Translations under genes and position numbers: made by a program
Shown: positions 3,625 to 58,426 of the stretch, piece by piece
Layout: each line of letters opens with the position of its first letter
Numbering within the stretch: position 1 is the stretch's first letter
The notes under the pieces: model-generated
Seen by the model: the letters and a program-made list of their open reading frames with translations, nothing else
Database searches by the model: none
Told to the model about the DNA's origin: nothing
Origin: Heliocidaris erythrogramma
Lineage: Eukaryota; Echinodermata; Echinoidea; Camarodonta; Echinometridae
Direction: 5' to 3'
DNA: 64,000 bases
Assembly (NCBI GenBank): GCA_025617745.1
Contig: CM046859.1
Location: 26,525,371 to 26,589,370, forward strand

Positions 3625-3738
3625 CGTTTTCATCCTGCCAGGCGTACGAGACCCTAGGATTCCCTCCTGGTTACTATTTCATTGACCCTGATGGTATTTC
3701 ATCAAACTTCAAACCGTTTGTAGTGCAGTGCCTAGAAG
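3625..3738 (+). CDS. Fibrinogen-like unit 1, first exon
   Basis: 114 nt, phase 1-1, acceptor TTTTGACAG, donor GTAAGA. It begins T-F-S-S-C-Q-A-Y-E-T-L-G-F, carries the fibrinogen-module signature P-G-Y-Y-F-I-D-P-D-G, and ends F-V-V-Q-C-L-E. The two cysteines are spaced as in the opening of fibrinogen C-terminal modules of CNTNAP proteins (known family pattern). The first exon of unit 2 (38706-38819) has exactly the same length. Confidence 0.85.
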
Positions 3739-5108
3739 GTAAGAATATGAACTTGTCCAAGATTACTACTTAGTACTTGAATGGCCTTTAGTGGGATACA
3801 ACTTACCTACCAACTGTCGCTATTTAACAGGGACAATCCCAATTTATGGAAAAAGAAAGAGCCATTTCTACCACTGTGTCCCTATTTTTGCAATAATCTG
3901 TCTGTAGTAATGTATAGGAAACTCTGAAATGTCCCATGTTTAGCCTCTGCCTTGTCATTTGTCCCTATTTCTTGGGTTTCAGGGTTGGCAGGTCTGGATA
4001 CAAGGGTATATACATGTATATCGCAGGAGCTTATAAGCACATTTTACGAGTTGGAACGACAAGTGACATAATTTGACACAAGTACGATATACCTTTTTGT
4101 CCTACAAAGGAAATTAAAGCCATTCATTTTTATTTTACATTGTTACAGTACCAAGATAAATAAAAATGCAAATACCAAACATATATTTTACTTTAAATGA
4201 CATACATTCAGTGAAATTCAGAACCATTCTTGAAGTGGGTTCCTTATGTGTGCATAGACATCATCACTTACAGGCTGACACAACGAATCTTTCATTTGGA
4301 AAACACTATGAACACCATACAGACAAATCTTTCAAGAACTTTGGAGAACTCATTTCTAAAAATGTTCTTGTGTGTAAAAGCGTACAAAATGCATAGTATT
4401 CTTGATTTTGCCTCAAGAGATCTTGAGACCTTGCTGTGGAAGTTTGGCAACTACATGTATTGTACTTTTATTTTTTCTGTGAGATATTAATACATGTCGA
4501 GAGAGACCTATATAGTGTACATGTATGTGTAGTCAATTTTGTTTTGCAGTATGAAGATCAGTCATTCATATTCATATTATGAAATTAGATAACAGAGATG
4601 TCATTCTCAACCTAGCAAATGAGTTATCAGTCTTTTATGCATAATTATGAAGATAGAAGACTGTGGCTGAGTGTGGCCGCTTTGTGGCTTGATCTGCCTC
4701 AACGTTTGCTTAGAATGTGCACAGCCTCTTTGTTGGTGAGAAAATATTGTAGCCAAACCGCACTTTACTTCCCTAGACCTGAAGTTCGTTGGACCCCAAT
4801 TTACAGTCAGTTGATGTAGATTGTTCTGAAAGAACTCTTTGTTGTTTGCGATGACCACTTCATGTTCACTGCATAAATTCTAGATCCGAAAATGGTTTGG
4901 ATCTGGTTAGTGTTATGATTATATGGTTAGGATAAGGTTAGGGTAAGGTTAGGGTAAGGATTAGGGATATGATTTAAACAATATCATATGCCGCCCAGCC
5001 TGGAACCTGAATAAAAAAGACGTGGGTCATGTCAGCTGTATTCAAGGTAGGCCTATGGTGTCTCAAAATGGAGGGTGACGAAACCCCATAAAAATCAGTA
5101 TCATTATT
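3739..5108. other. Intron, no feature recognised
   Basis: Start of an 11.8 kb intron. TTAGGG-like words (GGTTAGGGTAAGG) occur near 4922-4965. Small open frames at 4166-4860 have no recognisable content. Confidence 0.4.
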
Positions 5109-6688
5109 GTCTCGCCCACCGGAGGTGAAGGCGAGACTAAGGGATCCAAATGTCGTCCGTCCGTCACAAACGTTATGACAGATAACTTTGCAACCGTCAC
5201 TCACTTTTCAACCAAACTTGGGTTGTAGATGCACTGAGGGGACCTGCATGTTATGGTGCCGTTGGAGGTCACATGATAAGGTCAAAGGTCATTTGAGGTC
5301 AAACGTTAAAGTTTACCTGCAAGACTCTCTTATGACAGATAACTTTGCAACCGTCACTCACTTTTCAACCAAACTTGGGTTGTAGATGCACTGAGGGGAC
5401 CTGCATGTTATGGTGCTGTTGGAGGTCACATAATAAGGTCAAAGGTCATACGTTAAAGTTTACCTGCAAGACCTTCTTATGACAGATAACTTTGCAACCA
5501 TCACTCACTTTTCAACCAAACTTGGGTTGTAGATGCACTGAGGGGACCTGCATGTTATGGTGCCGTTGGAGGTCATATGATAGGGTCAAAGGTCATTTGA
5601 GGTCATACGTTAAAGTTTACCTGCAAGACTCTCTTATGACATAACTTTGCAACCGTCACTCACTTTTCAACCAAACTTGGGTTGTAGATGCACTAAGGGG
5701 ACCTGCATGTTATGGTGCCGTTGGAGGTCACATGATAAGGTCAAAGGTCATACGTTAAAGTTTACCTGCAAGACCTTCTTATGACAGATAACTTTGCAAC
5801 CATCACTCACTTTTCAACCAAACTTGGGTTGTAGATGCACTGAGGGGACCTGCATGTTATGGTGCCGTTGGAGGTCATATGATAGGGTCAAAGGTCATTT
5901 GAGGTCATACGTTAAAGTTTACCTGCAAGACCTTCTTATGACAGATAACTTTGCAACCGTCACTCACTTTTCAACCAAACTTGGGTTGTAGATGCACTTG
6001 GGGGACCTGCATGTTATGCTGCCATCAGAGGTCACATGATAAGATCAAAGGTCATACGTTAAAGTTTACCTGCAAGACCTTCTTATGACAGATAACTTTG
6101 CAACCGTCACTCACTTTTCAACCAAACTTGGGTTTTAGAAGCACTTGGGGGACCTGCATGTTATGCTGCCATCAGAGGTCACATGGTAAGGTCAAAGGTC
6201 ATTTCAGGTCAAACATTATAGTTTACCCGCAAGACTCTCTTATGACAGATAACTTTGCAACCGTCACTCACTTTTCAACCAAACTTGGGTTGTAGATGCA
6301 CTTGGGGGACCTGCATGTTATGCTGCCATCAGAGGTCACATGATAAGATCAAAGGTCATACGTTAAAGTTTACCTGCAAGACCTTCTTATGACAGATAAC
6401 TTTGCAACCGTCACTCACTTTTCAACCAAACTTGGGTTTTAGAAGCACTTGGGGGACCTGCATGTTATGCTGCCATCAGAGGTCACATGGTAAGGTCAAA
6501 GGTCATTTCAGGTCAAACATTATAGTTTACCCGCAAGACTCTCTTATGACATAACTTTGTAAACGTCACTTTCCAAACAGTAATGTAGATATATGCAAGC
6601 ATAACTTATGCAGATTTATGCACTTGGGGAACCTGTTGCATGGCAACAGAGATCACGATATTTCTAGTTATCGCATGTGGGCGAGACA
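5109..6688 (+). mobile_element. Minisatellite-bearing element 1 (CTCGCCC termini)
   Basis: It starts GTCTCGCCCACCGG, then forms a short hairpin with GGCGAGAC about 20 bp later, followed by a GTCGTCCGTCCGTC leader. About nine tandem units follow, alternating near 157 and 147 bp, each with ATGACAGATAACTTTGCAAC and AGGTCAAAGGTCAT. It ends GTGGGCGAGACA, the reverse of its start. CATTATT occurs immediately outside both ends and may be a target duplication. The repeated 65-residue frames here are by-products. The architecture resembles nonautonomous Helentron-type elements with central tandem repeats, by inference. Confidence 0.7.
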
Positions 6689-13627: not shown

Positions 13628-14025
13628 TATATATATATATATATATATACTTGTATATGTATGGTTATGGGGACATTCGCATTGTTATACGTCATCCCAA
13701 TGTCCCCATAACCGGGCTCCATGTCCCCGTAATCGGGTTGTTTTCACACTGGCGGAATAAATCGCATTGTTATAGGCCCCATAACCACAGTTTTGTATAT
13801 ATATATATATATATACTTGTATATATATGGTTATGGGGACATTCGCATTGTTATACGTCATCCCAATGTCCCCATAACCGGGCTCCATGTCCCCGTAATC
13901 GGGTTGTTTACACACTGACGGAATAAATCGCATTGTTATAGGTCCCCATAACCACAGTTTTGTATGTACTTGTATATATATATATATATATATATATAAA
14001 TATATATAGCGCCCCTCCCTCCCCC
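13628..14025. repeat. Tandemly duplicated palindromic element in (TA)n
   Basis: Two near-identical copies of about 150 bp (about 13658-13797 and 13828-13967) start GGTTATGGGGACATTCGC and end GGCCCCATAACCACAG or GGTCCCCATAACCACAG. Each contains an internal inverted repeat (GGTTATGGGGACATT against AATGTCCCCATAACC). (TA)n tracts precede, separate and follow the copies. Confidence 0.7.
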
Positions 14026-15498: not shown

Positions 15499-15747
15499 CG
15501 GGTGCTACCAGCTTCGACCATACAAATGCAAACAAGCCAGTTACAGTGGAAGGCGGGGAGGGTCAATGCAGGTTCCGTTCTATAATCAAATACAACCAAA
15601 CACCAAAACAGATTGAAGCCGTAATTACCAAGTCCAGCTCTTGCAGGCAGAGTATCAAGTACAATTGTTCCGGGTTGGTGCTTAACGATGGACCTAAACA
15701 CTACGGTTACTGGGTATCAAGGGATGGAAAGCCAATGCCTCCAAACA
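15499..15747 (+). CDS. Fibrinogen-like unit 1, central exon
   Basis: 249 nt, phase 1-1, acceptor ATGTTACAG, donor GTGAGT. Features in order: a short Asn/Thr segment, Q-C-R-F-R-S-I-I-K-Y, Q-I-E-A-V-I, the diagnostic S-C-R-Q-S-I-K-Y-N-C-S, and a G-Y-W-V-S-R-D-G patch. This matches the centre of CNTNAP fibrinogen-like regions, where C-x-Q-x5-C precedes a Trp-rich stretch (known family). N-C-S is a possible glycosylation site. In units 2 and 4 the same segment is split by a phase-0 intron. Confidence 0.85.
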
Positions 15748-17648
15748 GTGAGTTGAGGGACATGACTGCATGATAACTTTTACCATAAACCATGCCATTT
15801 CTTACCATTTTTTCACTGGGGGTCTGGTATGGCATTTTCAAGTCTGTATGTGTGAGCTCTATGCTACAATTTTGAAAGTGGGGTGTCTGGACTTAGACTT
15901 TTGGTGCCCATGTGTCCCAGGCACCTGTTAATGTCGAGCCCTGCATAGACTATAATTACATGTATAGAGTGTCCGCATAACAATAGTGATACTATATTTT
16001 CTAATGGAAGTTTTAAAGGAACATAAATGGCTGAAGGTGCCTTCCATTTACATGTACATGGACGTGTACATGTACTTTTAGATAAAAATGAAATCCGAAA
16101 ACAAAAATAATTCCTGTATTGTATGGAATAGCCCTTTGGCGATATCACTCCACATTTTGTGGTTTGGCTCAATAACTTTTGATTCAGAGCCCTAAAAATA
16201 TACCAGATGCATGAATAGAAAGAGCAAAAATTTCTGCACTCACTGTGTCCATTTTTGTTGCATTATTGCATTACTTGAATAACATGAATAATACATGATT
16301 GCATGAGCACAAATCAAGGATGTTTACAAGGTTGTCTGGATAAATTACTCAAATTTAACAAGCTCTTGAAGAGGAAACAGCCCCAAATGACTTTCCCATT
16401 TCTCCAGTCTGCTTGAAAGTGTGTTGTCCATATATATTCAATCATTTCTTTTATAAGCAAAACTATTTTTCAATAGGCAAAACAACCAAAATTACCGTTG
16501 AGTTGATTTCATGAAAGTCTTTGGGATGTTATTGATTACTGTTGGTTGTCGGTACATACAAATGATACACAAGTCTGAGTGTGTCGGTAGATATTTTGTG
16601 CATAAGATATATATGGAATTATTTAACCCATGAGGCACAGCCGAGTGGGTTTACCGCATGCACACAACATGAAGAAACCTGTGCATCATCTGTTTTCTAG
16701 AATGGTGGACAAATATTGGCCACAAATCAATTTTTTTTAATCAGCGTCCAGTAATTACCGAGGCATGGCAAATTTACCAGATGCATGGCTATAGCCATGC
16801 GTCGCTAATTACCGGACGCATGATTTTTCCACATGCAATTTAACACAATTTCCCCCATGTTTGTTTTACATTTATTTTAAATACAAGACTGTATTAAACT
16901 TACATTCTTTATGCAGTGATGACTATACTGTACAATGCTCTTGCCCACAACAGTAAGGAGGCCTACGCCTATACTTTTGCTACGGCATGCATAGTCTATG
17001 CTATGCCTATGCTAGTACGGCACACAGCTGGCTACATGTACTTGCACATTGTGTACGTTGTATGCCCTTAGTGCGATAAACGACAACAGTAATTCTGCTG
17101 CAGACTGTCCAAATCAGGCATTAAATGATAGCATCAGAACTGTTTGATACTAATTAGTAATTTGCCTTTATAATGTTTTTTTATATTAAACAAATCTAAT
17201 TAATTTCTTTGTACTTATGGCATCAGATTGGTCGTGTAAATCTGTTAAATCACCATCAGAACAGTTCATACTTGAGTGAATCTATAAAGTGTGCAGTAGC
17301 ATGTTTACAGTGGATATCGTAATACTGTAATTATTGATATCAAATGTCGGGCCAGTATTTAAAAATATTCTATTGGCAACTGGTCATTTGTTATTCGCTG
17401 GCCGATCATTCGAAGAAATCGGACTTGCGTGCGCACATGCGGGCAAGCACGGACGAGATACGTGCTAGGTACAGTTGCAGGCCATCTGCGGGGACCTACG
17501 GGTAGGAAAAATGGTTCCCCGCAAGTCACACGCAATTAGGCTTGCCCAGAAAGATGTGACAGCGCCTTTACATTGAATACCAGCCAAGGTGTTCACATGT
17601 ACCCTGAAATATCATCGGCTACGTACATGTACCTGCTTATCTGAACAA
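15748..17648. other. Intron, nothing recognised
   Basis: Unique sequence as far as I can see. A CATGCAT/CATGCGTC-rich patch with short internal inverted words lies near 16660-16830 and may be an old MITE, but its ends are unclear. Confidence 0.35.
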
Positions 17649-17860
17649 TTAACTCCACGGATTAGGAGCTCCACTGCCACCGTCGTTTGGCGATGGAGCT
17701 CCAGGTACAACTGACAAAAATCTTCTTCGCCCATTAGTTTGGTCGGTCGTATTGCTTAATTTCGGCAGGTAAGATGAAAATTTGTACTTACAGTTCAAGA
17801 GAATTACTGTAACTGTCCAGCAGGCACTTTGATTTCACGATTTATTGATTATTTCAATAA
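17649..17860 (+). repeat. Left terminal inverted repeat of the 8.2 kb element (outer part)
   Basis: It pairs in reverse complement with about 25620-25813. It contains GGAGCTCCACTGCC...TGGAGCTCC (a hairpin) and GGCAGGTAAGATGAAAAT. It is interrupted at about 17860 by a small MITE and resumes at about 18268-18335 with AAAAAATGGAATTTCC. Confidence 0.75.
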
Positions 17861-18267
17861 GCGAATTTGTAATTGGCCCATGAACAACTTTTTGCAAATG
17901 ACCTTTTCCATTTTTCATTAGGATAGGCATCTTTTCAAAGAAAGATAATACGTAAGCTTGCCCGACATAGCAACCTACAGAATTCAGACCAGGTGACTAG
18001 AATACCTTGTAGCACGTCAATGAACACTTGGGAAAACGCATTGTTTGCAAGTTGGCTATCATTTGGCAGACTGTCAAATACAAACCATCAATGAACACTT
18101 TGTTGCTTTTCAGTGGATTTAATGAAAAGCATAATTAAATGAATATAGGAATAATCATTACATAACAGTCGATGCTTATCTCAGTGAATTTTAAACGAAC
18201 ATGCCAGTTTATCTCAAATGGCCTTTATCTGCTCATGCGCAAATCCTAATTACGAACTCGCTTATTA
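17861..18267. mobile_element. MITE nested in the left terminal repeat
   Basis: About 0.4 kb, starting AATAAGCGAATTTGTAATTG and ending CCTAATTACGAACTCGCTTA, which are inverted versions of each other. The right copy of the terminal repeat (about 25600-25625) lacks this segment, which shows it is an insertion. Confidence 0.65.
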
Positions 18268-18345
18268 AAAAAATGGAATTTCCTCGCCAAGCTGATCTTC
18301 CCTCTACTGTAGCGTACCGTCGATTCATTTCTTCCTTGCGAGGAA

Positions 18346-20129
18346 CTAAGAGTGCTTGATGTTAGACTTGCAGTTGAAGACAAGGATGGCACTCTTAGAA
18401 GGGTTAATCTTGTATCTCCATGTGGATGCATACATGTGGGTGGTGTTGAGCATGGACTGGAGCTCATCAGCAGAGGAGGCAATCAACGCAACATCATCTG
18501 CTAGGACAATAACCCCTGCATACAGGTTTTGGAAATGACAACCAAGATCTGCAGCTCTAAGTGCCTTAATCAGCCCATCAATAAAGATGTTGTAGAGGAG
18601 GGGAGAGAGGATTCCACCTTGCCGGACTCCTTTCTCAAGAGGGAAGGATGAGCTGATTTCTCCTTTCCAGAGAACTTTACTGTTTGCTCCATTGTACATA
18701 TTAGCCAAAGTAGATAGGATCTCAGGAGGGATAGGAGAACTGGAAAGTTTATGAAACAAACCGGTATGCCAGACACAGTCAAACGCCTTGGCGGCATCTA
18801 GGAGTGCTACGTGGATTTCTTCTGGGTGGAGTGAAGATCATTGAGCATCTGAAGGGTCATGGAAGTTAGCATACATGACTTTGTAGCTTGGAAACCAAAC
18901 TGGAGTTCATCAGGCAAGTCTACTCCTGCAAGGGAATCTTCGATCATTGGCTTGATGGCTATTTCAAGGAGCTTAGACAGGGTTGGCGTTAGAGAAATAC
19001 CTCTGTAACTCGAAGGATCATTAACTGGCTTGTTTCCACCTTTGTGCAATGGTATGATAACGGCTTCCTTCAGAGATGCTGGAAGGTGACCAAGTCGTAT
19101 GGAGTTGTGAAAGAGGAGGAGAACAAATCTGCGCAGGGTAGGGCCTGAGTGAGTGAGATGCTCTGAAGTGATGTTGTCATTGCCCGGGGCTTTGCCTGGC
19201 TTTAGCCTCTTGATTGCCTCTTCCAAGTCGCGTGTAGTGAGAGTGAGAGTGTCATCAGCTCTATCATGTGCAAAGCTCGTAGTCAGTGGTGCTCTGGGTT
19301 GTTGAACACAGAGATGAGTGAGTGAGGGTGCAGAGCAGTAGGTGACATCCACTGATGAGAGGTCTCTGAAGTATTTTTTCCAACCTTTGATGACCTGGTT
19401 TCCACGAAACTTTGAATCCTTATAGGTGAGAAAAGGAAGGTCATTAGGAAGGGTTTTCCCTGATCTATTGGCCTTGACAAGTCTGTAGAAGAGTGTGCTG
19501 TCTCTTTCATTAGCAATCTCAATCTTTGCTTGTGTGGATAGTCTCTGAGCGGCTTCAGATTGTCTGAGGGTTCTTCTGAAGGACTTTTTGGCCTCCAGGT
19601 AAGCTACCCAGAGAGGATGACCATCTTTTGGTTTACCACCCTGCTTCCATTTTTTCCAGGAAGATAGTGAGGATGAGTATGCCAACTTTACAGCCTGTGA
19701 CCAATTAGGTTTGCCATGTTTCCTGTCTTTGTGAGGGAGTCTTAAGGAAAGACCTAGCATTTGCTCTTGGATACATGCAAATAGCTGGTCTACAGACATC
19801 TGGTCTAAAAGGAGTGAGTGTAGTTTATGAAAGATTGATGCAGCTACCAACTCTAGGGGTTCAGTGTAAAGTTCTGATATCTCCTTGTGATCTGATGGCC
19901 AAAGAACTGTGTATCTGCGGACTGGAGTGGATGACTTTAATGAAGATGTATCAGCATGACCCCGACTGGAACTGGGGTCACTTGCAGGGAGAAGAGCAGA
20001 AACAAGGACAGGCCTATGATCAGATGTGTTAAGAGGGTGTTCAGAGAGGATTTTCGAGATCAGTGAACATCTGTGTCTTATATGAAGGAACGATGAATCC
20101 ATCGATGTTGGACTTCCTCCGGCCATCAT
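18346..20129 (-). pseudogene. Non-LTR retrotransposon reverse transcriptase (frameshifted, 3'-truncated)
   Basis: The long frame at 18807-20129 begins with the C-terminal endonuclease motif S-D-H-R-P-V and continues into RT: L-K-P-G-K-A-P-G-N-D-N-I, then L-K-E-A-V-I-I-P-L-H-K-G and S-Y-R-G-I-S-L-T. It ends near 18807. Motif A (D-A-A-K-A-F-D) is in another frame near 18780. The frame at 18346-18759 carries G-V-R-Q-G-G-I-L-S-P-L-L-Y-N-I-F-I-D and the catalytic A-D-D-V-A-L-I. The thumb and C-terminal region are missing: the frame stops just before the inner edge of the left terminal repeat. This is an APE-type non-LTR element; the CR1/L2 neighbourhood is likely but the clade is not established. 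It is not functional. Confidence 0.85.
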
Positions 20130-20559
20130 CTGTCATGAAAGTGTAGTGGTCTGGTATACTTCTAAGCGCAGTGAGGCTTGATAGGTTTTCTGACTTCAGG
20201 ACATTATATAGAATCTCAGCTGTTCGTTTCCTGGGGGCAGCTTGGGTGAGGTCAGCATTGAAGTCCCCAGCAACAACTTTCATGTGGGACATGTCAGCGG
20301 AGGTCAGAAGTGATGCAATTTCAGACAGGCAGAGTAGGTATTCAACAACATCAGCTCGAGAGGTGCCACTAGGCAGGTAACAGTTTACAACAAGAAATTT
20401 CTTGGATAATGGAAGTTGAGGCTCTGCCCTGATGAAAACCCGAAGGCAGCGGAGAGACATGGTATAGAAGATTTGAGGGAACAGGTACTCCAGGCATGTT
20501 CGCAAGGACATACGGGTGGTGCAACGGAGTTCGACTATTTCCATCTGAGGGGTCTCCAT
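20041..20559 (-). pseudogene. AP-type endonuclease domain of the retroelement (frameshifted)
   Basis: The frame encodes F-L-V-V-N-C-Y-L-P-S-G, the signature V-V-A-G-D-F-N-A-D, and D-H-Y-T-F-M-T-D-D-G-R-R-K-S-N-I-D-G-F, the usual order in APE-like endonucleases of non-LTR elements. It overlaps the start of the RT frame in a different register, so at least one frameshift separates them. The endonuclease N-terminus is disrupted by the 184 bp duplication next to it. Confidence 0.8.
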
Positions 20560-20862
20560 AGCTTAGATTTTGCGAGGATCTAGCATAATGGAGTGAAGGG
20601 AAAGTCGGGTGGCTGAGAAGGTGAAGAGCTTTCGCAGAGGCCTGATGGAGTGTTTCCATTATCGAAATGTGTGTCAATGTTGAGGCTCTGCCCTGATGAA
20701 AACCCGAAGGCAGCGGAGAGACATGGTATAGAAGATTTGAGGGAACAGGTACTCCAGGCATGTTCGCAAGGACATACGGGTGGTGCAACGCAGTTCGACT
20801 ATTTCCATCTGAGGGGTCTCCATAGCTTAGATTTTGCGAGGATCTAGCATAATGGAGTGAAG
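20415..20862. repeat. 184 bp direct duplication within the retroelement
   Basis: 20415-20598 and 20679-20862 are equal in length and almost identical by eye (one clear difference: CAACGGAG against CAACGCAG), separated by 80 bp. The duplication produces repeated S-L-H-Y-A-R-S-S-Q-N-L-S-Y blocks in the open frame at 20369-21145. The near identity implies a recent event, after the element was already dead. Confidence 0.85.
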
Positions 20863-21389
20863 ATGAAAACGGAGCCATGGATGTGCCACGGAACAGCGTG
20901 TCCGAGGGAGATGATGCTTGAGTGTCTCCTTGGTATGGAGTTGGAGAGACATCTAGTTTGTTTAGATTACATACCTGGCCGGGTGTAATCGAGTCTGTAT
21001 GGCTATATGTATGAGAAGCATTAGGCATATCTGGAAAGTCCATTGGCATCTCTGTTGGTATTAGAGGCCACTTGGGTTGTCCAGGACTGATAGAACTATG
21101 AGGGATAGTAGGCTGCGGGCTTTTTCTCTGTGATGGGTGTGTCAAGCCAGATATAGTGGCGCTGCTTGGGTCATAAGAGCTGGATCTCCGGCTAGTTGAA
21201 GAGATCCGATTCAGATTTATGGAGACTCTAGTTTTGAGGGAAGTTGGGTAATGTCTCGGGGGAGAAAAATTTCCTGGAGGATCAAGTGACTGGGGTTTGG
21301 AGACGGAGGAAGTAGTTCCAACTTTTGTTGGTCTTTGAGGCAGGTTTGCAGGGTCTGCTAAGGGTGGTGGAACAGGCCTTACAGATACT

Positions 21390-21855
21390 AATAATAATAA
21401 TAATAGTGGCTACTTGTATAGCGCACAGGTCCACCTTTCGGTGCTCATGGCGCTTAGAGAAAATTACATACAGAATTCTCCTAAACATACTAAATTAAAA
21501 TACTACAATAATTACAACAAAGAAAACAAATATGATTTCAGTTGTGATTTGAATGTTTCTGTTGACGACAGTTGACGTAATTGTAGAGGGAGTTCATTCC
21601 AGAGTTTCGGACCCATAGCTGAAAAAGCCTGATCGCCCCAAGCATGTTTTGTTCTAGGTGTACGAAGCAGCAATTTGTCTGATGACGAGCGAAGACTTCG
21701 TGTGGGATTGTATTTGGAAATAGAGTTGCACAGGTATGTGGGGGAAAAAGAGTAAACTGCATGATGTACCAATAACAGAATTTTAAAGATAATCCTTTTT
21801 TCAACTGGTAGCCAATGAAGAGAACGGAAAATTGGTGATATGGAATCATATCATA
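21390..21855 (-). mobile_element. 5'-truncated CR1/L2-type LINE tail
   Basis: The minus-strand frame at 21512-21772 ends with the classic LINE ORF2 C-terminus P-K-L-W-N-E-L-P-L-Q-L-R followed by F-K-S-Q-L-K-S-Y-L-F. Downstream comes GCGCTATACAAGTAGCCAC and a (TTA)n tail. It is inserted between the ORF1-like and endonuclease parts of the host retroelement. An (ATATC)n tract sits at its truncated 5' side. Confidence 0.8.
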
Positions 21856-23977: not shown

Positions 23978-24234
23978 CCATAAACCTGTAGCGTGTTGTC
24001 AGAGGGATTTATTGAGATCTTGGCACACTAACAACTCACAAATGGACTCTACAGACTAACAGTGATCCCGGAGGTAGAGGCTGACTTCCAATTAGCTGAA
24101 AAGTTATAACTGAGAATATAACTTAACCCAGGGGAATGCCTTGTGCTATAATTATGTAGGCAGTGTACATGCAAGAAAATATAATATAGATCAAGGCTTA
24201 TGTACGGTGGCTGATTTCCGCCAAGGTTTTTTTT

Positions 24235-25048
24235 TCTTTATTCAGTACGGCGTTATAACGCCCTAAATTACGGCGATAAAACACCCTATTACGGCGTTAT
24301 AATGCTCTATTACGGCGATATTACGCCCTGTTAGGGCGTTATAACGCCCTAAATTTTGGCGATATAACGCCCTAATACGGCGATATAACGCCCTATATTA
24401 CGGCGTGATAACGCCCTATTACGGCGTAATAACGCCCTATTACGGCGATATAACGCCCTATTACGGCGATATAACGCCCTATTATGGCGTTATAAGTTAT
24501 AACGCCCTAAATTACGGCGTCATAAAGCCCTAAATTACGGCGTAATAACGCCCTATTACGGCGATATAACGCCCTATTACGGCGTTATAACACCCTAAAT
24601 TACGGCGATATAACGCCCAATTACGGCATTATAACGCCCTATTATGGCGATATTACGCCCTATTACGGCGTTATAACGTCCTAAATTACGGCGTAATAAC
24701 GCCCTAAATTATGGCGATATAACGCCCTAGTACAGCGATATAACGCCCTAATACGGCGATATAACGTCCTATTACGGCGTAATAACGCCCTAAATTACGG
24801 CGTAATAACGCCCTATTACGGCGATATAACGCCCTAACACCCTAAATTACGGCGTAATAACGCCATAAATTACGGCGGTATAACGTCCAATTACGGCATT
24901 ATAACGCCCTCTTATGGCGATATTACGGCGTTATAACGTCCTAAATTACGGCGTAATAACGCCCTAAATTATGGCGATATAACGCCCTAGTACGGCGTTA
25001 TAACGCCCTAAATTACGGCGTTATAACGCCCTATTACGGCGATACTAA
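24235..25048. repeat. Palindromic minisatellite (GGCGTTATAACGCC units)
   Basis: Roughly three dozen units of about 21-24 bp on the theme TACGGCGTTATAACGCCCTA, with GGCGATATAACGCC and GGCGTAATAACGCC variants. Most units contain a 14 bp palindrome or near-palindrome, so the array can form many small cruciforms. It lies inside the 8.2 kb element, upstream of the ORF1-like region. Confidence 0.85.
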
Positions 25049-25552
25049 AATCAGCCACTGTACTTATGATATTGATAAGATATTGCCTCCACAAAGTAAC
25101 ACAGATATTTGAGTGTGGGCATAAAGCATGCAGTATGAGTGTGGGCATAAAGCATGCAGTATGAGTATGAAGAGTAAAGCGTGTACGGTGTAGTAATAGT
25201 GAAAACTAAGTGATCCAGATTGAGTGAGGAACAAAATGGCAGCATTGAGTGAGAAATGCACAAGGGATCACATACAGTACACGTGTGCACACCCAGTGTA
25301 TACGCGAGGTGAGATGTGTGGGACTAGGTGGCAGCTTTTTGCAGAGCAGGAAACAAAGCTAAAGATGAAGGACTTGCTGGAATTAGACCTATTTACTAAT
25401 TACACAAAAAATCACCCACAAACTCTCCGAAGCAAACAATTCTTCACTTTTGCAAAGATCAATACAAAAAGAAAATATGGCCCATGGGATTCCAAAATAA
25501 CAGAATTTTAGAATTAGATCGCGAAGGGAGAGACACAGTGCGATCGAGTGTT

Positions 25553-25813: not shown

Positions 25814-25832
25814 CGAACAATAAGAATATCCC

Positions 25833-25975: not shown

Positions 25976-26134
25976 GCTGCTCCAACACCAATATGAAGTG
26001 CAATTGTGATTCCAACGTGAGAGATATTGAAAATCTCCCGGTCAAAGCGCTTTGCTTCGGTGACACTGATGGTGACGTAGGAACGGAGTGGGGTATCTAT
26101 ACGTTGGGACCCCTCCTCTGCACTGGTGATACAA
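25976..26134 (+). CDS. Fibrinogen-like unit 1, CNCD exon
   Basis: 159 nt, phase 1-1, donor GTAAGT. Joined to the previous exon it reads C-S-N-T-N-M-K-C-N-C-D-S-N, then N-L-P-V-K-A-L-C-F-G-D-T-D and T-L-G-P-L-L-C-T-G-D. CNCD, LPV, FGDTD and LGPLxC are in the same order as in CNTNAP fibrinogen-like regions. It closes unit 1 (174 codons). The acceptor is preceded by a duplicated decoy copy of itself. Confidence 0.88.
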
Positions 26135-27740: not shown

Positions 27741-27769
27741 TGTAAAAACCAAGACCGACCCTAGACTGA

Positions 27770-38705: not shown

Positions 38706-38819
38706 TGTTTACATCATGTGAGCTACGATATCTTATCGATGGTACTATGGATGACTCTGTCCTGCTTGACCCAGATGGGAGTGGAAATGTCTATCTTGGA
38801 GCATGTCGATTTGAACCTG
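38706..38819 (+). CDS. Fibrinogen-like unit 2, first exon
   Basis: 114 nt, phase 1-1, acceptor CCCTCTAG, donor GTAATG. It begins V-F-T-S-C-E-L-R-Y-L and has D-D-S-V-L-L-D-P-D-G-S-G, ending G-A-C-R-F-E-P. It matches exon 3625-3738 in length, cysteine positions and the D-P-D-G turn; the G-Y-Y-x-I signature is changed to D-D-S-V-L-L. Confidence 0.82.
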
Positions 38820-40019: not shown

Positions 40020-40180
40020 GTAAGACAGTCACAGAAATGGAAGTCACAACGTCAAGTTTCACTGTGGCTACCAGTCAGTCTCCATTCCAAGGTGAAATCG
40101 CCTACAGCACGGGTGACAACAGCGTAAGCGAAGACCAACTGATTGCTCTTATTGACAATTCTGGGAACTGCACTCAAAGG
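40020..40180 (+). CDS. Fibrinogen-like unit 2, second exon
   Basis: 161 nt, phase 1 at the start, phase 0 at the end (AGG|GTGAGA). It encodes G-K-T-V-T-E-M-E-V-T-T-S-S-F, Q-G-E-I-A-Y-S-T-G, D-Q-L-I-A-L-I-D-N-S-G and N-C-T-Q-R, the first half of the C-x-Q-x5-C motif, which the next exon completes. D-Q-L-I-A-L-I aligns with P-K-Q-I-E-A-V-I of unit 1. N-C-T is a potential N-glycosylation site. Confidence 0.82.
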
Positions 40181-41413: not shown

Positions 41414-41516
41414 GTCTTCTTTAGCTGCCAAGGTGCTTCTCTTGGAGTAGACGGGTCGAATGGTATCCTTCTGGGCAGAAATGGTAGTGAGATAGAGTCT
41501 CCATGGAGTGGAATTG
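41414..41516 (+). CDS. Fibrinogen-like unit 2, third exon
   Basis: 103 nt, phase 0 to phase 1, acceptor CTCCCTCAG, donor GTGAGT. V-F-F-S-C completes C-x-Q-x5-C. It continues G-V-D-G-S-N-G-I-L-L-G-R-N-G-S-E and P-W-S-G-I. The Trp-Trp patch is reduced to one Trp. N-G-S is a potential glycosylation site. Confidence 0.8.
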
Positions 41517-42007
41517 GTGAGTATATACATGTAATCTTAATAGGGCAATCCAACCTTTGTAATCAGGTGATATGTGTGAAAGAAAAGATAAAAGAAACAT
41601 GCTGGTAATTCTCTTAAAAATAGGTAAATATAAACATTTTATATCCTACCAGCAAAGTTAGTGTCATGGCCATGATGTGTAATATGGTGTTTTGGAATCA
41701 TCAAAATTATGACAAATTGAATTTACCCCGCTAAACTAAATCACAAAAGGGAAAAATAGTAGACACAGAAATAGGTACATGGGGCTACATAAACCTATGG
41801 CTTCAGAATTTTGTCCAGAGTTTTAATAACTGCTGGGTGTATGTCTAGTCATAGTTGAATTATGAGATCACTTCAAGAACAGTCCTTTTCATTGAAGAAT
41901 ATCATGATTGCTTCTATGATGTTCTTCCTCTTCGGAATAGAAAAAGTGAAAAAGCACAGCCTTTCCTTTAAGTTGTCATTTTGACCCCTCATGTCTTTTT
42001 CTTACAG

Positions 42008-42181
42008 ATGGTACCTGCAGTAATCCAAACACTTGTAAGTGCCTTACTGAAAACGACAGTGGACTGAATGAGGCTGTCATTACAGACAGACACCTTTTGC
42101 CACTAACTGGATTCAGGCTCGACTCTGTTGATGGGGCCGGACGATTCCATTTTGGTAATCTGCAGTGCACAAATGACCAGA
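42008..42181 (+). CDS. Fibrinogen-like unit 2, CxC exon
   Basis: 174 nt, phase 1-1, acceptor TTCTTACAG, donor GTAAGT. It encodes G-T-C-S-N-P-N-T-C-K-C-L-T-E, L-L-P-L-T-G-F-R-L and F-G-N-L-Q-C-T-N-D. CKC replaces CNC and LPL replaces LPV. It has the same length as the unit 4 exon at 58253-58426. Confidence 0.85.
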
Positions 42182-42844: not shown

Positions 42845-43290
42845 TTTTTTCTTGTTTTGTTCTTATTCTTGTTCCTGTTCCTGTTCTTGTTCCTGTTCTC
42901 GTACTTGTTCCAGTTGCTGCTCTTGTTCTTGTTCCTGTTGCTGCTCTTGTTCATGTTCTTGTTCCTGTTCTTGTTCCTGTTCTTGTTCCTGTTCCTGTTC
43001 CTGTTCCTGCTGCTGCTCTTGTTCATGTTCTTGTTCTTGTTCTTGTTCTTGTTGTTCCTGTTCCTGTTCCTGTTCCTGTTCCTGTTCCTGTTCCTGTTCT
43101 TGTTCTTGTTCTTGTTCTTGTTCCTGTTCTTGTTCCTGTTCTTGTCCCTTTCCTGCTCTTGTTCTTGTACCTGTTCTTGTTCCTGTTCGTGTTCCTGTTC
43201 GTGTTCCTGCTCTTGTTCTTGTTTTTGTTACTGTTCTTGTTCTTGTTCCTTTTCTTGTTTCTGTTCCTTTTCTTGTCTGTGTTCTAGTTT
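42845..43290. repeat. Hexanucleotide satellite (TTCCTG/TTCTTG)n
   Basis: About 0.45 kb of TTCTTG/TTCCTG/TTGCTG units on a 6-bp period, with all purines on one strand limited to G. It starts about 40 bp after a splice donor. The long Val-Pro, Phe-Leu, Ser-Cys and Asn-Arg frames over it are artefacts. Confidence 0.9.
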
Positions 43291-44252: not shown

Positions 44253-44372
44253 TGCTGAGATCTTGCTACGAGTTAAAGGAGTATTTCAACAATGCAATGC
44301 TGCGTGGTTTCTACAGGATCAACCCGAATCCTGCATCAGGCAGGATTGCGACCGTCTTCTGTGAAGCAGATG
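44253..44372 (+). CDS. Fibrinogen-like unit 3, first exon
   Basis: 120 nt, phase 1-1, donor GTACGT. It encodes V-L-R-S-C-Y-E-L-K-E-Y-F, then R-G-F-Y-R-I-N-P-N-P and A-T-V-F-C-E-A-D. G-F-Y-R-I-N-P replaces G-Y-Y-x-I-D-P; both cysteines are kept. Confidence 0.85.
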
Positions 44373-44451: not shown

Positions 44452-45062
44452 TTAAAAGGAATAGTCCACCCTGGTTACAAGTTGGTTTTAATACAAGCAG
44501 AAAATTTAAAGAAACAGATCAGTGAAGGTTTAAGCAAAATATGATAAGAAATAAGAAAATTATTATTTTTTTAAAGTGATTTGGTAACTTTGTAGAGGCT
44601 TGATAAAATCTGAGCTGCCTGGCCTTACATGCTAACAGTGTATGTAATATGGTGTAAAAATGAAGCCCAGGGGGAAAAAAGCATTTCAAAATCATCATAT
44701 CCTTCACAAAATTAAATATATGCAAGTGACCGGAAATGACAGACTCATATAGACTCAGTGTTTGGACTAAAGCGTATGGCTATACGCTTTCGTAAATGGG
44801 AGTATTCAGTCATAGATATCTTAATAATAGCATTATATATTTGAAAACCTTTCTATGCCTGGCTATTTATTTATCCTGATGAACATCATTATACTAGACA
44901 GATATCAAATTTCAACAATTTATTAAATCAAGCCTCCACAAAGTTACCAAATCCCTTTAATCCATTTATCTATTGAAATTCTTGAATCTGATTGGCTGAG
45001 AGCAATTTGTCATATAAATGGGGCAGTTTTTATTGATAAGAAGTTTTTTGAAACAGGGCCCA
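44452..45062. mobile_element. Two adjacent inverted-repeat elements
   Basis: 44452-44965: AATAGTCCACCCTGG at the left, with GATTTGGTAACTTTGTAGAG near 44579 against the inverted CCTCCACAAAGTTACCAAATC near 44932. It is followed at 44966-45062 by a truncated copy of the GATTGGCTGAGAGCA family. Confidence 0.6.
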
Positions 45063-45098
45063 GGATGCAACTTCATATTGCTTTAATCCCTTCCACAG

Positions 45099-45377
45099 GT
45101 ACTACTGTGATAAGACATGACAGTATGGGTGTCAATTTTCTGAATAAATACCACCGAGAAATTGAGCCGACGTACTATGAATCAGATAGATTCATGGCCG
45201 ACCTTAAAGAAATCTCGCATGAATGCAGGCAATACGTAAAGGCAACCTGTAAAAACATGCCTTTCTTCGACGGCAATCAAGCACCTCTCGCATCCTGGAC
45301 TGGCCTTGATGATATGGAACGGTACAGCTGGGGGACTGAGTCCAATCTTGTAGGGTGCCCGTGCAACTATAGGGATG
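45099..45377 (+). CDS. Fibrinogen-like unit 3, central exon
   Basis: 279 nt, phase 1-1, acceptor CTTCCACAG, donor GTGAGT. It encodes T-T-V-I-R-H-D-S-M-G-V, F-M-A-D-L-K-E-I, the motif E-C-R-Q-Y-V-K-A-T-C, then L-A-S-W-T-G-L and G-C-P-C-N-Y-R-D. It is unsplit, like unit 1. I-R-H-D-S corresponds to the V-I-H-H-D-D of unit 4. Confidence 0.85.
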
Positions 45378-46327
45378 GTGAGTATTGAATGCTTGATCAT
45401 GGTTTAGTATTTTTATTTAATTGTATGTTCAAACATGTTTAATCCAGTGAAATTCCATTATTGATGATCAAAAGGTGATTTAAAAAAAAACAACATTTAG
45501 ATTTAATCATGAAGTATGACTGTGTTATCTGTTTTACATCCTCGTCATGCCAAGGTAAAAAAGGAACAATATAGAGAGAATATGGAATCATTCATGTTGC
45601 TAGGTGCTGTCAAGTCCTCCCCGCCTCCTGGTGACCCCATGGACAAACTCTCTCCATGTTATTCTGTCTAACTTGCCTAATACTGCATTCAATTACATTC
45701 TAGTCACCATGTATGTGTATGCATTAGTGAAAGGTACATGTAGCTTAGGGAAACTTTATATGGCACATAAAGACACGGGAAAGATGCAAACAGCAAAACT
45801 GCTAGTTTTGTCTATGCATGTAAGATTATAATCAGACTTGCATGTATCAGAATAAAAGTTTCCATATCATCTTGCTGGAAAGTGAATAGAGTTAACCCCT
45901 ACCATGCCGTGGGCGGCAAATCCCGCCCTAAAATTTGAGTGTTGAACATTTTGTTTAGGCTGAGAAAAGCTTGCAATATACTTATTCCTATACAATATAC
46001 ATGTATCTTTGCCCAGTTTTCTCAAGAAAAATCTCATTGAAAGTTAATGTTTTATTCTTGAAAATTCACTTTTGATAATTGCCCAAAGATCTGGTGGCAT
46101 GGAAGGGGTTAAATACTAATTCTACATCGTGATATTTTTGTTTTTCCTCTATGGAATGTAATAATGAGTTTGAATAATTTTTGTCATTTGTGTCTTCCCT
46201 GGGATTTTATGTACCATCACGTTTGTCAATTAAGCTACATGTATATGTACATGTACAACAATGTAGGAATGACTAACTATTGACTCATCTGACCGCATAT
46301 TTTATTCTTTCTTCCTTCTCGATACAG
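45378..46327. other. Intron with a LINE/SINE fragment
   Basis: 45602-45690 (GGTGCTGTCAAGTCCTCCC, GGTGACCCCATGGAC) resembles a common metazoan retroelement 3' end. Otherwise unique. Confidence 0.4.
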
Positions 46328-46347
46328 CTAGATGTAATGAAGGAAAG
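46328..46347 (+). CDS. Fibrinogen-like unit 3, 20-nt microexon
   Basis: Phase 1 to phase 0, acceptor CGATACAG, donor GTGAGT. It encodes A-R-C-N-E-G-K. It supplies the cysteine that precedes CNCD (compare A-E-G-A-A-R-C-N-C-D in unit 4 and the fused exons in units 1 and 2). It restores the frame between 45377 (phase 1) and 47270 (phase 0). Confidence 0.65.
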
Positions 46348-47269: not shown

Positions 47270-47423
47270 CTGTGCAACTGCGATGCTTTCCCTGGACACG
47301 AGACACTGGATGAAATCTTTCTCAAGGAGCCTGCCAAGAGATTCAACTTCCAGGAGGTAGAGGGACAGGGAAACTCACTGGAGCTAGGAGGGTATGAGTG
47401 CAGTGGATCCAGATCAGTCTTGG
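47270..47423 (+). CDS. Fibrinogen-like unit 3, CNCD exon
   Basis: 154 nt, phase 0 to phase 1, acceptor CCATTCAG, donor GTATGT. It encodes L-C-N-C-D-A-F-P-G-H-E-T, K-E-P-A-K-R-F-N-F-Q-E-V and L-G-G-Y-E-C-S-G-S. The CNCD and final L-x-x-x-C positions are kept; the LPV-FGD stretch has diverged. Confidence 0.85.
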
Positions 47424-50227: not shown

Positions 50228-50380
50228 TTCCTGAGCTACAAACATGCAGTGATGTTTTGAAAGCTTTAGAGGTGGACCGGGCCTTTTCCGGCTACTACTT
50301 AATCGACCCAGATGGCCAGGATGGCAGCCTTCCTCCTTTCTTTGCTTTCTGCGATTTCTATTATGAGATGTCTGGAACAG
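50228..50380 (+). CDS. Fibrinogen-like unit 4, first exon
   Basis: 153 nt, phase 1-1, acceptor TTTCTGACAG, donor GTAAAT. It encodes V-P-E-L-Q-T-C-S-D-V-L-K-A-L, the signature S-G-Y-Y-L-I-D-P-D-G-Q-D-G, and F-A-F-C-D-F-Y-Y-E-M. The most canonical opening of the four units. Its 3' half and donor are duplicated as a dead copy at 51069-51200. Confidence 0.88.
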
Positions 50381-55429: not shown

Positions 55430-55545
55430 CTGAGACCGTAATCCATCATGACGATGAGGGCTTCTTGTGGGCGGATGAGGAGGGCTTCACACAACGGTTT
55501 AGATACGCAGGGGCTTCAATCCCACAGATCGCTGCCCTAGCTAAG
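55430..55545 (+). CDS. Fibrinogen-like unit 4, second exon
   Basis: 116 nt, phase 1 to phase 0, acceptor CTTTGATAG, donor GTAGGC. It encodes A-E-T-V-I-H-H-D-D-E-G-F, G-F-T-Q-R-F-R-Y-A and I-P-Q-I-A-A-L-A-K. P-Q-I-A-A-L aligns with K-Q-I-E-A-V of unit 1 and D-Q-L-I-A-L of unit 2. It ends before the C-x-Q-x5-C motif. Confidence 0.82.
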
Positions 55546-56364: not shown

Positions 56365-56533
56365 ATATCAGAGAAGTGTGAGCAAATGATTGAATTCAAT
56401 TGTGAAGGCTCACCCATCTGGGACGGAGAGGAACAAAGAGCATGGTGGACCGACCGATACGGTGAAAAGATGGTCAACTGGGGTGATGTCACCACAGGAA
56501 CCAAAGGATGTGCTTGCATGGCCACAGCAGAAG
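56365..56533 (+). CDS. Fibrinogen-like unit 4, third exon
   Basis: 169 nt, phase 0 to phase 1, donor GTGAGT. It encodes I-S-E-K-C-E-Q-M-I-E-F-N-C-E-G, then R-A-W-W-T-D-R-Y-G and W-G-D-V-T-T-G-T-K-G-C-A-C. C-x-Q-x5-C, WW and G-C-x-C match the CNTNAP order. Two in-frame acceptors are possible: TTTGAAG before 56365, or GAGAAG before 56377, 12 nt later. Confidence 0.85.
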
Positions 56534-56584
56534 GTGAGTGTGGAGTGGTCCAAATCAGTGATGGGGAATTTCATTCAAACCATG

Positions 56585-58040
56585 GGTTAAACCCCGGTGG
56601 AGCCACTCAATGTGACTTGGGGACCGCATGACCGTTACCAAAATCGCGGATATAGGGGTAAATTTCAAGGAACGTCCGCGGACAGAATATTCCTCGAAAT
56701 ATAGAAAATAGGGGTGCGCAGGTGTCCTCGAAATTGATAAAATAGGGGTCAGGAAAAGGGAAGAAACCCCAAGGCATGAAGAAAAATCCCGAAGCGGAGT
56801 CGCTAGCTGCGGGCCTGCCGGGGATCGGAGGGCGCGTTCATCGTTGAGAAAAAAATCCCCGTATTGCCGTCTGTCAGCAAGATGGCGGACGTGAAGGTAA
56901 TAACACTGTTGGGCTCGATCGCTCGCTGCACGCTGATTAGCCATAGCATAGGCTAGGCAGCATGACGCCACTGGCAGCTCTCCAGCGCCATCTTGTTTCC
57001 CTCAAAACAATTCTGGAACGTCGCCGCTGTATTTTGACCAAGTTTGAAGGACTATTTTACTCATATAATCATCATATGCCCTTCAAAGATGAAGTGGGAA
57101 GATGCACGAATCGTGATGTTCGTGAAAGTCGTGTGAAAGGACTTATGTTTCACAGTGGTCACACTTCACAGGTATGAATAGTTCAACTTACACTAACACT
57201 AACAGTAACACTACAGTCCCATTCATACGCTTTCATGTTAGTTTTTGGGTGTATGGGTATGAGGTTACTGCGGCAGGCCGAGTCCATGAATCCGGTAATC
57301 TAGCAAATTAAAGATAATCAAATCTTGCTTAGAGCAATTTTGTTGTCTGTTTTTGACCGCTGCAACAGTGAATGTTGGATACAGTCCCACATAGGCAAGG
57401 GCCCACCCATAGGCCATCTCGTGTATGAATGATCTAGACTGGAAATAGGCACGCTGATACACACAATGACACAAAAGCTGTTGACTTGAAGCCTATTCAC
57501 CCATGAAAGCTAGTCTGGAGTACAAGGTTATCTTCAGATAAGCTTGTACATGTATAAGTTGGTATGAGGTTATTTAACCTCGCTTATTTGTGAGTGGTCA
57601 GACATAGCGGTTATTTCAAATAACCATATGGTCCATAGAGTTCAGTAGTTTTTCCCCAGGAGTTTATATGAACTATTGCCGAAATATTTTTAAATGAATA
57701 ATAACACATTAAAAAATGTGTTTTCCTTATATTAATTGTGTGTGAACTTGTAATTTGAGGAATCGGGTCTTGGACACCTATTATGTTAATGAAAGAAGGG
57801 CATAAACGTCTTGTCCTTGAAATATGGTAAAATAGGGGAAAGTTTCCGAAAGTGTCCTTACAATCTTAAAAATAGGGGTATTTCAAAGTACCATTTTGTC
57901 CTTGTTTTGACGTAAAAAGGGGGTTCAATTTCACAGAATGTCCTTGAAATTGACTGCAAAAGGGGGTTATTTGCATTTTTGGTAACGGTCATACGCGTCA
58001 CCCTCTGCGGGGGAGTGACTCCACCGGGGTTTAAACCCGC
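56585..58040. mobile_element. 1.45 kb TIR element
   Basis: GTTAAACCCCGGTGGAGCCA at the left and TGACTCCACCGGGGTTTAAA at the right; GACCGTTACCAAAA and TTTTGGTAACGGTC also pair. AATAGGGG with TCCTTGAAAT-like words recurs just inside both ends. The frame at 56962-57177 (M-T-P-L-A-A-L-Q-R-H) has no recognisable domain. Probably a nonautonomous DNA transposon inside an intron. Confidence 0.75.
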
Positions 58041-58252
58041 TTGTATACCATGGGATAAAAAAAATAAATGACAAGTCTACAGTGTATATTGCTAGACCAT
58101 GAAATGGCAGTGTGATGGATGACGTACATTACTGTAATACATGCGTACATGTATTATGTTCATGGAGTTTTAAAGCATATTACTATTTTTATGAAAATAT
58201 ACATGTATGCTCCACTTTCAAGTAATTATCTTTGCACTTGCTCTACATACAG

Positions 58253-58426
58253 GATGTGCTGAAGGAGCTGCTCGCTGTAACTGTGATGCCAACTCAACTT
58301 CCATCTTGACTGATAGCGGTATTTTGAGTGATAAGAATCATCTGCCCGTCACCTCTGTGACCTTTGGTGACAGTGTCAGTGACAAGGGCTCGTTCATGGC
58401 CTCTGAACTCAGGTGTAGTGGACAAG
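58253..58426 (+). CDS. Fibrinogen-like unit 4, CNCD exon
   Basis: 174 nt, phase 1-1, acceptor CATACAG, donor GTCAGT. It encodes G-C-A-E-G-A-A-R-C-N-C-D-A-N-S-T, D-S-G-I-L-S-D-K-N-H-L-P-V-T-S-V-T-F-G-D and S-E-L-R-C-S-G. It keeps D-x-G-x-L-x-D-K-x-x-L-P-V and FGD, the closest match to CNTNAP proteins in the window. N-S-T is a potential glycosylation site. Confidence 0.9.

What the first reader, a model, noticed from the sequence alone, without database searches (positions are those of the whole stretch)
3625..58426. Four consecutive CNTNAP-type fibrinogen-like modules in one gene
Four copies keep C-x-Q-x5-C (SCRQSIKYNC, NCTQRVFFSC, ECRQYVKATC, KCEQMIEFNC) and a CxC exon (KCNCD, TCKCL, LCNCD, RCNCD). 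CNTNAP proteins normally carry a single such region between laminin-G/EGF modules. A tandem array joined to a FAMeT-like domain is, as far as I know, not a described architecture.
Basis: partly seen in the sequence, partly recalled or inferred. Interest (0 to 1): 0.8.

Follow-up and report, generated by a model that had tools for sequence, protein, structure and literature searches.

The report
Tandem fibrinogen-like modules in glue-type gene
The DNA holds the front part of a very large, probably secreted sea-urchin-type protein in which four related fibrinogen/collagen-like modules sit ahead of domains typical of animal glues and mucus; similar arrays exist, mostly unlabelled, in starfish and mollusc proteins, so the architecture is real but not unique.

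Summary
Fifteen exons from 3625 to 58426 (+ strand) encode four consecutive CNTNAP-type modules and a sixteenth starts a Methyltransf_FA (FAMeT) domain; they join in frame without a stop. A profile built from 62 modules of other proteins scores the four at 156, 87, 79 and 58 bits. Pfam Fibrinogen_C hits none of the window modules; related modules hit COLFI and Fibrinogen_C.

The gene is not a CNTNAP. It runs about 58 kb past the window through SUEL lectin, EGF, VWD-C8-TIL, a Pro-rich stretch, F5/8C and a second VWD-C8-TIL. It matches S. purpuratus LOC100889795 and is roughly collinear with a 3748-aa Acanthaster protein with three modules. This is the domain set of sea-star footprint and alpha-tectorin-like cohesive proteins.

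The novelty claim is partly wrong: 24 of 28 molluscan-type hits carry exactly seven such modules, and the same genome holds other module genes. I saw no description of the array in the papers searched. Best reading: a secreted, disulfide-linked cohesive or mucus matrix protein with an overlooked module array. Tissue and adhesive role are untested.

The parts
2568..2690 (+). candidate upstream exon (phase 1 to 1), 40 aa; not in the verified chain
   Evidence: splice and coding scores; only a weak, non-significant resemblance to the linker before the first module of Acanthaster P0122 (E 0.67 alone)
3625..3738 (+). module 1, exon A (IDPDG segment)
   Evidence: splice chain (acceptor weak, 0.5); profile hit E 3.6e-4
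15499..15747 (+). module 1, exon B (CRQSIKYNC)
   Evidence: profile hit E 1.6e-12
25976..26134 (+). module 1, exon D (KCNCD ... LGPLLC)
   Evidence: profile hit E 7.3e-6
38706..38819 (+). module 2, exon A (LLDPDG)
   Evidence: covered in the module 2 profile alignment; no hit on its own
40020..40180 (+). module 2, exon B1 (NCTQR|)
   Evidence: profile hit E 1.4e-4
41414..41516 (+). module 2, exon B2 (|VFFSC)
   Evidence: no hit on its own
42008..42181 (+). module 2, exon D (TCKCL ... LQC)
   Evidence: profile hit E 1.1e-5
44253..44372 (+). module 3, exon A (RINPN)
   Evidence: no hit on its own
45099..45377 (+). module 3, exon B (CRQYVKATC, CPC)
   Evidence: profile hit E 1.4e-13
46328..46347 (+). 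module 3, 20-base micro-exon (RCNEGK); inferred
   Evidence: splice scores acceptor 5.2, donor 5.6; closes the frame between exons B and D
47270..47423 (+). module 3, exon D (LCNCD)
   Evidence: weak profile hit E 1.8
50228..50380 (+). module 4, exon A (LIDPDG)
   Evidence: profile hit E 1.3e-4
55430..55545 (+). module 4, exon B1 (TVIHHD)
   Evidence: weak profile hit E 1.2
56365..56533 (+). module 4, exon B2 (KCEQMIEFNC ... CAC)
   Evidence: acceptor weak, -0.9; profile hit E 1.1e-11; matches S. purpuratus P0001
58253..58426 (+). module 4, exon D (RCNCD)
   Evidence: profile hit E 3.1e-14
63625..63789 (+). first exon of the Methyltransf_FA (FAMeT) domain; continues outside the window at 70535 (window numbering)
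   Evidence: chose the donor at 63793; 63789 is the one in frame with 70535; joined domain 53 bits to PF12248, cut-off 24.2

Best explanation
The window holds the 5' part of one large gene for a secreted, cysteine-rich matrix protein of the echinoderm Sfp/alpha-tectorin-like kind. Its order is four CNTNAP-type (COLFI/fibrinogen-related) modules, FAMeT, SUEL lectin, EGF, VWD-C8-TIL, Pro-rich spacer, an unnamed domain, F5/8C, EGF, VWD-C8-TIL and a further Cys-rich exon. Shown here: modules, order, frame, homologues. Inferred: secretion; the VWD-C8-TIL units link chains into disulfide-bonded multimers (only the second VWD keeps a CGLCG motif); SUEL, F5/8C and FAMeT bind glycans or other matrix proteins; the four modules form a stiff disulfide-stabilised N-terminal rod that makes protein contacts or oligomers, as related COLFI and fibrinogen domains do. 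The product would be a cohesive mesh in a temporary adhesive or in surface mucus.
For: Sixteen exons join in frame with no stop, 808 aa with the donor at 63793 and 807 aa with 63789. S. purpuratus XP_011677870.1 (LOC100889795, 1600 aa) maps in order on one strand from module 4 (56332) to the second TIL (121776), 56-84% identical outside the Pro-rich part. That annotated protein runs from a module 4 exon into the FAMeT, so both lie in one gene model. In the whole own genome 18 of 29 matches to it lie at this locus, all on the + strand, including the 9 best. Acanthaster LOC110989137 (3748 aa) has three modules at 611-1223 and aligns collinearly with model residues 180-1143 and 1539-2267. Pfam hits above cut-off on typed exon joins: Methyltransf_FA, SUEL, VWD twice, C8, TIL twice, F5/8C. 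Published footprint proteins combine vWD, C8, TIL, D-Gal lectin, EGF, FA58C and FAMeT domains, and Sfp1 has FAMeT (PMC9382459, section 2.4 and passages; PMC10057474 and PMC7037938, passages). Cysteine is 5.5% of the approximate model.
Against: No transcript, proteomic or tissue evidence for this gene was seen. The P. lividus alpha-tectorin-like adhesive candidate is the homologue of another S. purpuratus locus, LOC100892803 (PMC10057474, passages), so this gene may have a different job. No GDP[HY] motif occurs in the model or in P0001, unlike the cleaved Sfp1/Sfp2 (paper) and the first VWD of Acanthaster P0122. The SUEL exon has no match in the S. purpuratus model list. The stretch of Acanthaster in the FAMeT position is not recognised by Pfam. 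Taken alone, the Acanthaster modules match a C15 locus of this genome better than the window exons, though intact and split exons are not comparable. Start codon and signal peptide were not found.
Confidence: 0.8

Rival explanations
1. A narrower version of the best explanation: a mucus or gut-surface gel protein (FCGBP/zonadhesin-like) or an egg/embryo matrix protein, with no role in tube-foot adhesion.
For: Three of the molluscan relatives bear such names: FCGBP-like (P0002), zonadhesin (P0025), mucus 2 (P0027); most others are unnamed or uncharacterized. The adhesive P. lividus homologue is a different locus (PMC10057474, passages).
Against: The window gene and Acanthaster P0122 share SUEL and F5/8C, and the window gene FAMeT, with footprint proteins (PMC9382459 section 2.4); these domains are not seen in the three molluscan proteins scanned nor in the database Pfam lists of that group.
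Confidence: 0.45
2. It is a CNTNAP/neurexin-4 type receptor with an expanded fibrinogen-like region.
For: All four modules score on a CNTNAP-only profile; in the module tree window modules 1, 3 and 4 fall in the wider group that includes CNTNAP.
Against: No LamG in the scanned pieces; downstream exons are SUEL, VWD, C8, TIL; 147 of the 149 remaining hits, nearly all named CNTNAP or neurexin-4, have one module.
Confidence: 0.02
3. Two neighbouring genes: a four-module gene and a separate FAMeT-SUEL-VWD gene.
For: Introns of up to about 12 kb and transposon insertions lie between exons; no transcript was seen.
Against: Frame is kept from 58426 to 63625; the S. purpuratus model runs from module 4 into FAMeT; in Acanthaster modules and VWD are one protein.
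Confidence: 0.06
4. The array is a decayed or mis-assembled stretch.
For: Modules 1 and 2 lack one CxC loop and module 2 scores lowest (58 bits).
Against: All 16 exons are open and spliceable in frame; Acanthaster module 2 lacks the same loop.
Confidence: 0.03

Closest known systems
S. purpuratus LOC100889795 (XP_011677870.1, P0001)
   Same: matches exon by exon, 56-84% identical outside the Pro-rich part, from module 4 exon B2 to the second TIL; this locus is its best match in the genome
   Different: the annotated model starts inside module 4, so whether it has modules 1-3 could not be seen; no SUEL match
Acanthaster planci LOC110989137 (P0122, 3748 aa); by length and a GDPH in its first VWD possibly the counterpart of A. 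rubens Sfp2 (3716 aa) - a guess
   Same: tandem modules, SUEL, EGF, VWD-C8-TIL and F5/8C in roughly collinear order
   Different: three modules, SUEL domains in front, more SUEL and F5/8C copies, no Pfam-recognised FAMeT, GDPH in the first VWD
Molluscan VWD proteins, FCGBP-like (Mya, Crassostrea, Patella, Octopus and others)
   Same: tandem array of the same module; VWD listed for 24 of 28 hits, and exactly seven modules plus VWD in 21 of 28
   Different: mostly seven modules; no FAMeT, SUEL or F5/8C in the three scanned; modules cluster by position among molluscs, apart from most echinoderm modules
CNTNAP / neurexin-4
   Same: one module of the same family
   Different: single module, LamG domains, different downstream domains
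A. rubens Sfp1/Sfp2 and P. lividus alpha-tectorin-like (PMC9382459, PMC10057474)
   Same: domain set VWD, C8, TIL, lectin, EGF, F5/8C, FAMeT (Sfp1)

Membership tests
CNTNAP-type fibrinogen-like module | match to a profile of CNTNAP modules | tested here: met
   75-module CNTNAP profile: 106, 68, 33, 25 bits
CNTNAP-type fibrinogen-like module | conserved cysteines incl. C-x-Q-x5-C and final CxC | tested here: met
   4 of 4 modules; the first CxC loop is absent in modules 1 and 2
Fibrinogen_C (PF00147) | score above Pfam cut-off | tested here: not met
   no hit at E <= 1 for any window module; 3 of 12 members of alignment A2 match at E <= 0.5, best 8.1e-5
COLFI (PF01410) | score above Pfam cut-off | tested here: not met
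   only module 3, 12.5 bits against 26.2; 7 of 12 members of A2 match at E <= 0.5, best 8.5e-9
CNTNAP / neurexin-4 protein family | LamG domains | tested here: not met
   no LamG in the scanned exon pieces; the gene's 3' end was not scanned
CNTNAP / neurexin-4 protein family | C-terminal transmembrane segment | not tested
   3' end of the gene not modelled
Methyltransf_FA (PF12248) | score above Pfam cut-off | tested here: met
   53 bits against 24.2
Sfp1/Sfp2-like cohesive proteins | VWD, C8, TIL, lectin, EGF, F5/8C, FAMeT in one protein | tested here: met
   EGF and the first C8 by homology to P0001; that all lie in one protein is inferred from P0001 and P0122
Sfp1/Sfp2-like cohesive proteins | autocatalytic GDPH-type cleavage site | tested here: not met
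   no GDP[HY] in the approximate model or in P0001
Sfp1/Sfp2-like cohesive proteins | expression in tube-foot adhesive glands and presence in footprints | not testable with these tools
   no expression data

The most novel reading that the evidence does not exclude
A tandem CNTNAP/COLFI-type array is an overlooked, recurrent N-terminal half of VWD-based glue and mucus proteins in molluscs (seven copies) and echinoderms (three or four). It is the part that oligomerises or binds the surface, and the single module of neuronal CNTNAPs derives from the same ancient secreted-matrix module.
Probability: 0.25. Interest if true: 0.7.

Novelty: new variant of a known kind. Interest (0 to 1): 0.5.

Why it matters
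Pfam leaves the four-module part of this protein (about 750 aa) without a domain above cut-off, and shows no COLFI or Fibrinogen_C in the Patella and Lottia relatives either, although a profile finds seven modules in each. Naming the module gives an expressible target for testing how temporary adhesives and invertebrate mucus cohere, and a route to the origin of the CNTNAP fibrinogen-like region. By sequence I found no CNTNAP module among solved structures.

Tried and rejected
CNTNAP receptor: rejected, downstream exons are SUEL and VWD-C8-TIL. Fibrinogen_C or COLFI as family name for the window modules: below cut-off. A loop exon (W...CxC) for modules 1 and 2: none convincing between 15747-25976 or 41516-42008, so the loop is probably absent. 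Search with the ORF at 44927-45385: besides itself it mainly matched a dispersed repeat in its 5' intronic part. Profile of the four window units alone against the PDB: nothing at E <= 1; with 12 modules, fibrinogen beta chain E 6.3e-6 and collagen alpha-1(I) E 8.2e-5. Module tree (FastTree, 59 modules, 198 columns): mollusc modules cluster by position; window modules 1, 3 and 4 fall with other echinoderm, SRCR, GRL101 and CNTNAP modules (local support 0.93), several inner nodes being weak; module 2 falls with mollusc modules on a very long branch, which I read as an artefact. Whether mollusc and echinoderm arrays are one inheritance or two is open. Structure prediction was not tried: by its stated rule a spliced module does not qualify, and the whole relatives listed exceed 1200 aa. 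The full outputs were cut or capped.
Full report
WHAT IS THERE. The window is a 64-kb piece of a 1.06-Gb genome. A simple exon scan and a splice-and-frame check give 15 exons for four modules and a sixteenth for the start of a FAMeT domain. They join in frame with no stop (808 aa; 807 aa with the donor that fits the next FAMeT exon). Most junctions are phase 1; phase-0 junctions split modules 2, 3 and 4. Two acceptors are weak (3625 and 56365). A 20-base exon at 46328-46347 closes module 3.

IS IT MORE THAN CHANCE. A profile from 62 modules of 14 other proteins, without window sequence, scores the four joined units 156, 87, 79 and 58 bits. On 10,835 six-frame ORFs of window plus flanks (244 kb) it lists 14 stretches: 11 in the array, all on the + strand and in order, 9 of them at E < 1e-3; two array exons (E 1.8, 1.2) are no better than the best reversed ORF (E 1.2); the other three have E 2.5 to 9.5. 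No further module shows at E < 1 in 80 kb upstream or 100 kb downstream. A profile of 75 CNTNAP modules alone gives 106, 68, 33 and 25 bits.

WHAT THE MODULE IS. Fibrinogen_C and COLFI do not pass their cut-offs on any window module. Of 12 aligned modules (8 from other proteins, 4 of the window), 7 match COLFI and 3 match Fibrinogen_C at E <= 0.5. A profile of the 12 finds fibrinogen beta chain (positions 2-54, E 6.3e-6) and collagen alpha-1(I) chain (positions 2-108, E 8.2e-5) in the PDB, but no CNTNAP among the 58 listed; a CNTNAP1 module alone also finds none. The module is thus best called a CNTNAP-type relative of the COLFI/fibrinogen domains. Modules 1 and 2 lack the first CxC loop, as does Acanthaster module 2.

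WHAT GENE IT IS. Exons continue downstream: FAMeT (53 bits when its two exons are joined), SUEL lectin 55.5, first VWD 55.6, TIL 55.1, F5/8C 74.3, second VWD 121.8, C8 43.8 and TIL 33.8 bits. S. purpuratus XP_011677870.1 (LOC100889795) maps onto exons in order from module 4 to the second TIL. It also locates the first C8, EGF exons at 75.9, 76.1 and 115.0 kb, a Pro-rich stretch at about 93-106 kb, and a domain at 108.6 kb that Pfam does not know; it shows no match to the SUEL exon. A Cys-rich exon at 128.1 kb is matched by Mya P0002 and Acanthaster P0122. That annotated S. purpuratus protein starts inside module 4 and runs into the FAMeT. Genome-wide, 18 of 29 matches to it lie at this locus on the + strand, among them the 9 best; a weaker relative (38-48% over short stretches, 29% in one) lies on C9 at 6.07 Mb, and two long ORFs on C21 match at 29%. 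Acanthaster LOC110989137 (3748 aa) has three modules, then SUEL, EGF, VWD and more, and aligns with the model over two long collinear blocks. Its stretch in the FAMeT position is not recognised by Pfam. I take the source to be a sea urchin or near relative; this is inferred from the S. purpuratus match and was not tested otherwise.

RELATED ARRAYS. Three protein searches gave 198 proteins (one search listed its best 120 of 198 hits). Module counts at E < 1e-5: in the molluscan group (P0002-P0028 and P0123; 24 named as molluscs, 4 unnamed) exactly seven in 24 of 28, the others 9, 8, 6 and 5, the 9 in a Mya model with partial copies; VWD is listed by the database for 24 of these 28 and both seven modules and VWD for 21. 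Two in 16 of 17 SRCR-type hits of vertebrates and one hemichordate, one in the seventeenth. Three in Acanthaster and in Diadema P0124, where they follow F5/8C domains. One in the truncated S. purpuratus protein. Two in an arthropod GRL101-like receptor. One in 147 of the 149 remaining hits, nearly all named CNTNAP or neurexin-4; the two others (P0197, P0198) were not examined. The search picks candidates by shared words, so these are not complete surveys. In a tree of 59 modules the molluscan ones cluster by position 1-7 in chiton, bivalves, gastropod and cephalopod, which suggests that array is old. Echinoderm modules, except window module 2 on a very long branch, sit with CNTNAP, GRL101 and SRCR-type modules (local support 0.93).

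OTHER MODULE LOCI IN THIS GENOME. The three Acanthaster modules match 26 places at E <= 0.1: three in the window and 23 elsewhere, the weaker of which may be chance; six lie on C3 within 65 kb on one strand, perhaps another array. Of three 10-kb stretches read, two on C15 each hold an intronless frame of about 400 aa with one full module (129.5 and 144.3 bits) behind a hydrophobic start and a Thr/Pro-rich part, and one on C3 holds two adjacent exon-like module pieces (58.6 and 42.3 bits). So the module is a wider family here.

HOW IT MOST LIKELY WORKS. Shown: composition and order. Inferred from known families: secretion, disulfide-linked multimers through VWD-C8-TIL (only the second VWD has CGLCG), glycan or protein binding by SUEL, F5/8C and FAMeT, and a stiff N-terminal rod of four disulfide-bonded modules for contacts or oligomerisation. 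There is no GDP[HY] site in the model, so the autocatalytic cleavage described for Sfp1 and Sfp2 is not expected in the modelled part.

LITERATURE. PMC9382459 (section 2.4 with its figure legend read; other passages): Sfp1, 3853 aa, and Sfp2, 3716 aa, have comparable domains; Sfp1, 3, 4a and 5 have FAMeT; the legend names no fibrinogen-, COLFI- or CNTNAP-type domain; the figure itself was not seen. PMC10057474 (passages): the P. lividus alpha-tectorin-like candidate corresponds to S. purpuratus LOC100892803, another locus. PMC7037938 (passages): related adhesive candidates and their domains. PMC10475054 (passages): snail mucus proteins with C-terminal fibrinogen-like domains. In these main texts 'contactin' has no occurrence and 'neurexin' none in the four where I searched it. 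Searches of the open-access library showed, by titles and abstract openings, no description of the array; subscription papers and supplements are not covered.

VERDICT. Real, in one gene as far as models show, and misjudged as unique: a new variant of the VWD-type adhesive/mucus proteins with an overlooked module array.

Noticed in passing
window 18349-23998, - strand: LINE-type element inside the intron between module 1 exons B and D: reverse transcriptase 83.5 bits, endonuclease 23.4 bits (below its cut-off), PHD finger 39 bits.
   Followed up: partly
window 5173-6570; 13630-13997; 24246-25044; 42858-43276; 61092-63111: Tandem arrays outside the exons, with periods of about 147/304, 166, 21, 6 and 170 bases.
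   Followed up: no
window 1432-1899 and 27736-28258: Two copies of a diverged dispersed repeat, pieces about 83-92% alike in translation.
   Followed up: no
L021:4580-5056 (window numbering 108580-109056, outside the window): A 158-aa domain with no Pfam match, conserved in S. purpuratus (77% identical) and weakly in Acanthaster (E 0.005), just ahead of F5/8C.
   Followed up: partly
L027/L028 = G000:C15:4408284-4409471 and 4419606-4420832, - strand: Two intronless frames of about 400 aa, each with a hydrophobic start, a Thr/Pro-rich part and one full CNTNAP-type module: small, probably secreted single-module proteins.
   Followed up: partly
G000:C3:23259149-23324162, - strand: Six module matches within 65 kb, perhaps a second multi-module gene; only 10 kb (L029) were read.
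   Followed up: partly
P0124, Diadema antillarum, residues 828-1438: A sea urchin protein with four F5/8C domains followed by three of the same modules: another echinoid architecture with an array.
   Followed up: partly
own genome, e.g. contig C21: The Methyltransf_FA search lists 44 matches, 18 of them on C21, but none in the window gene, whose domain is split between exons.
   Followed up: no
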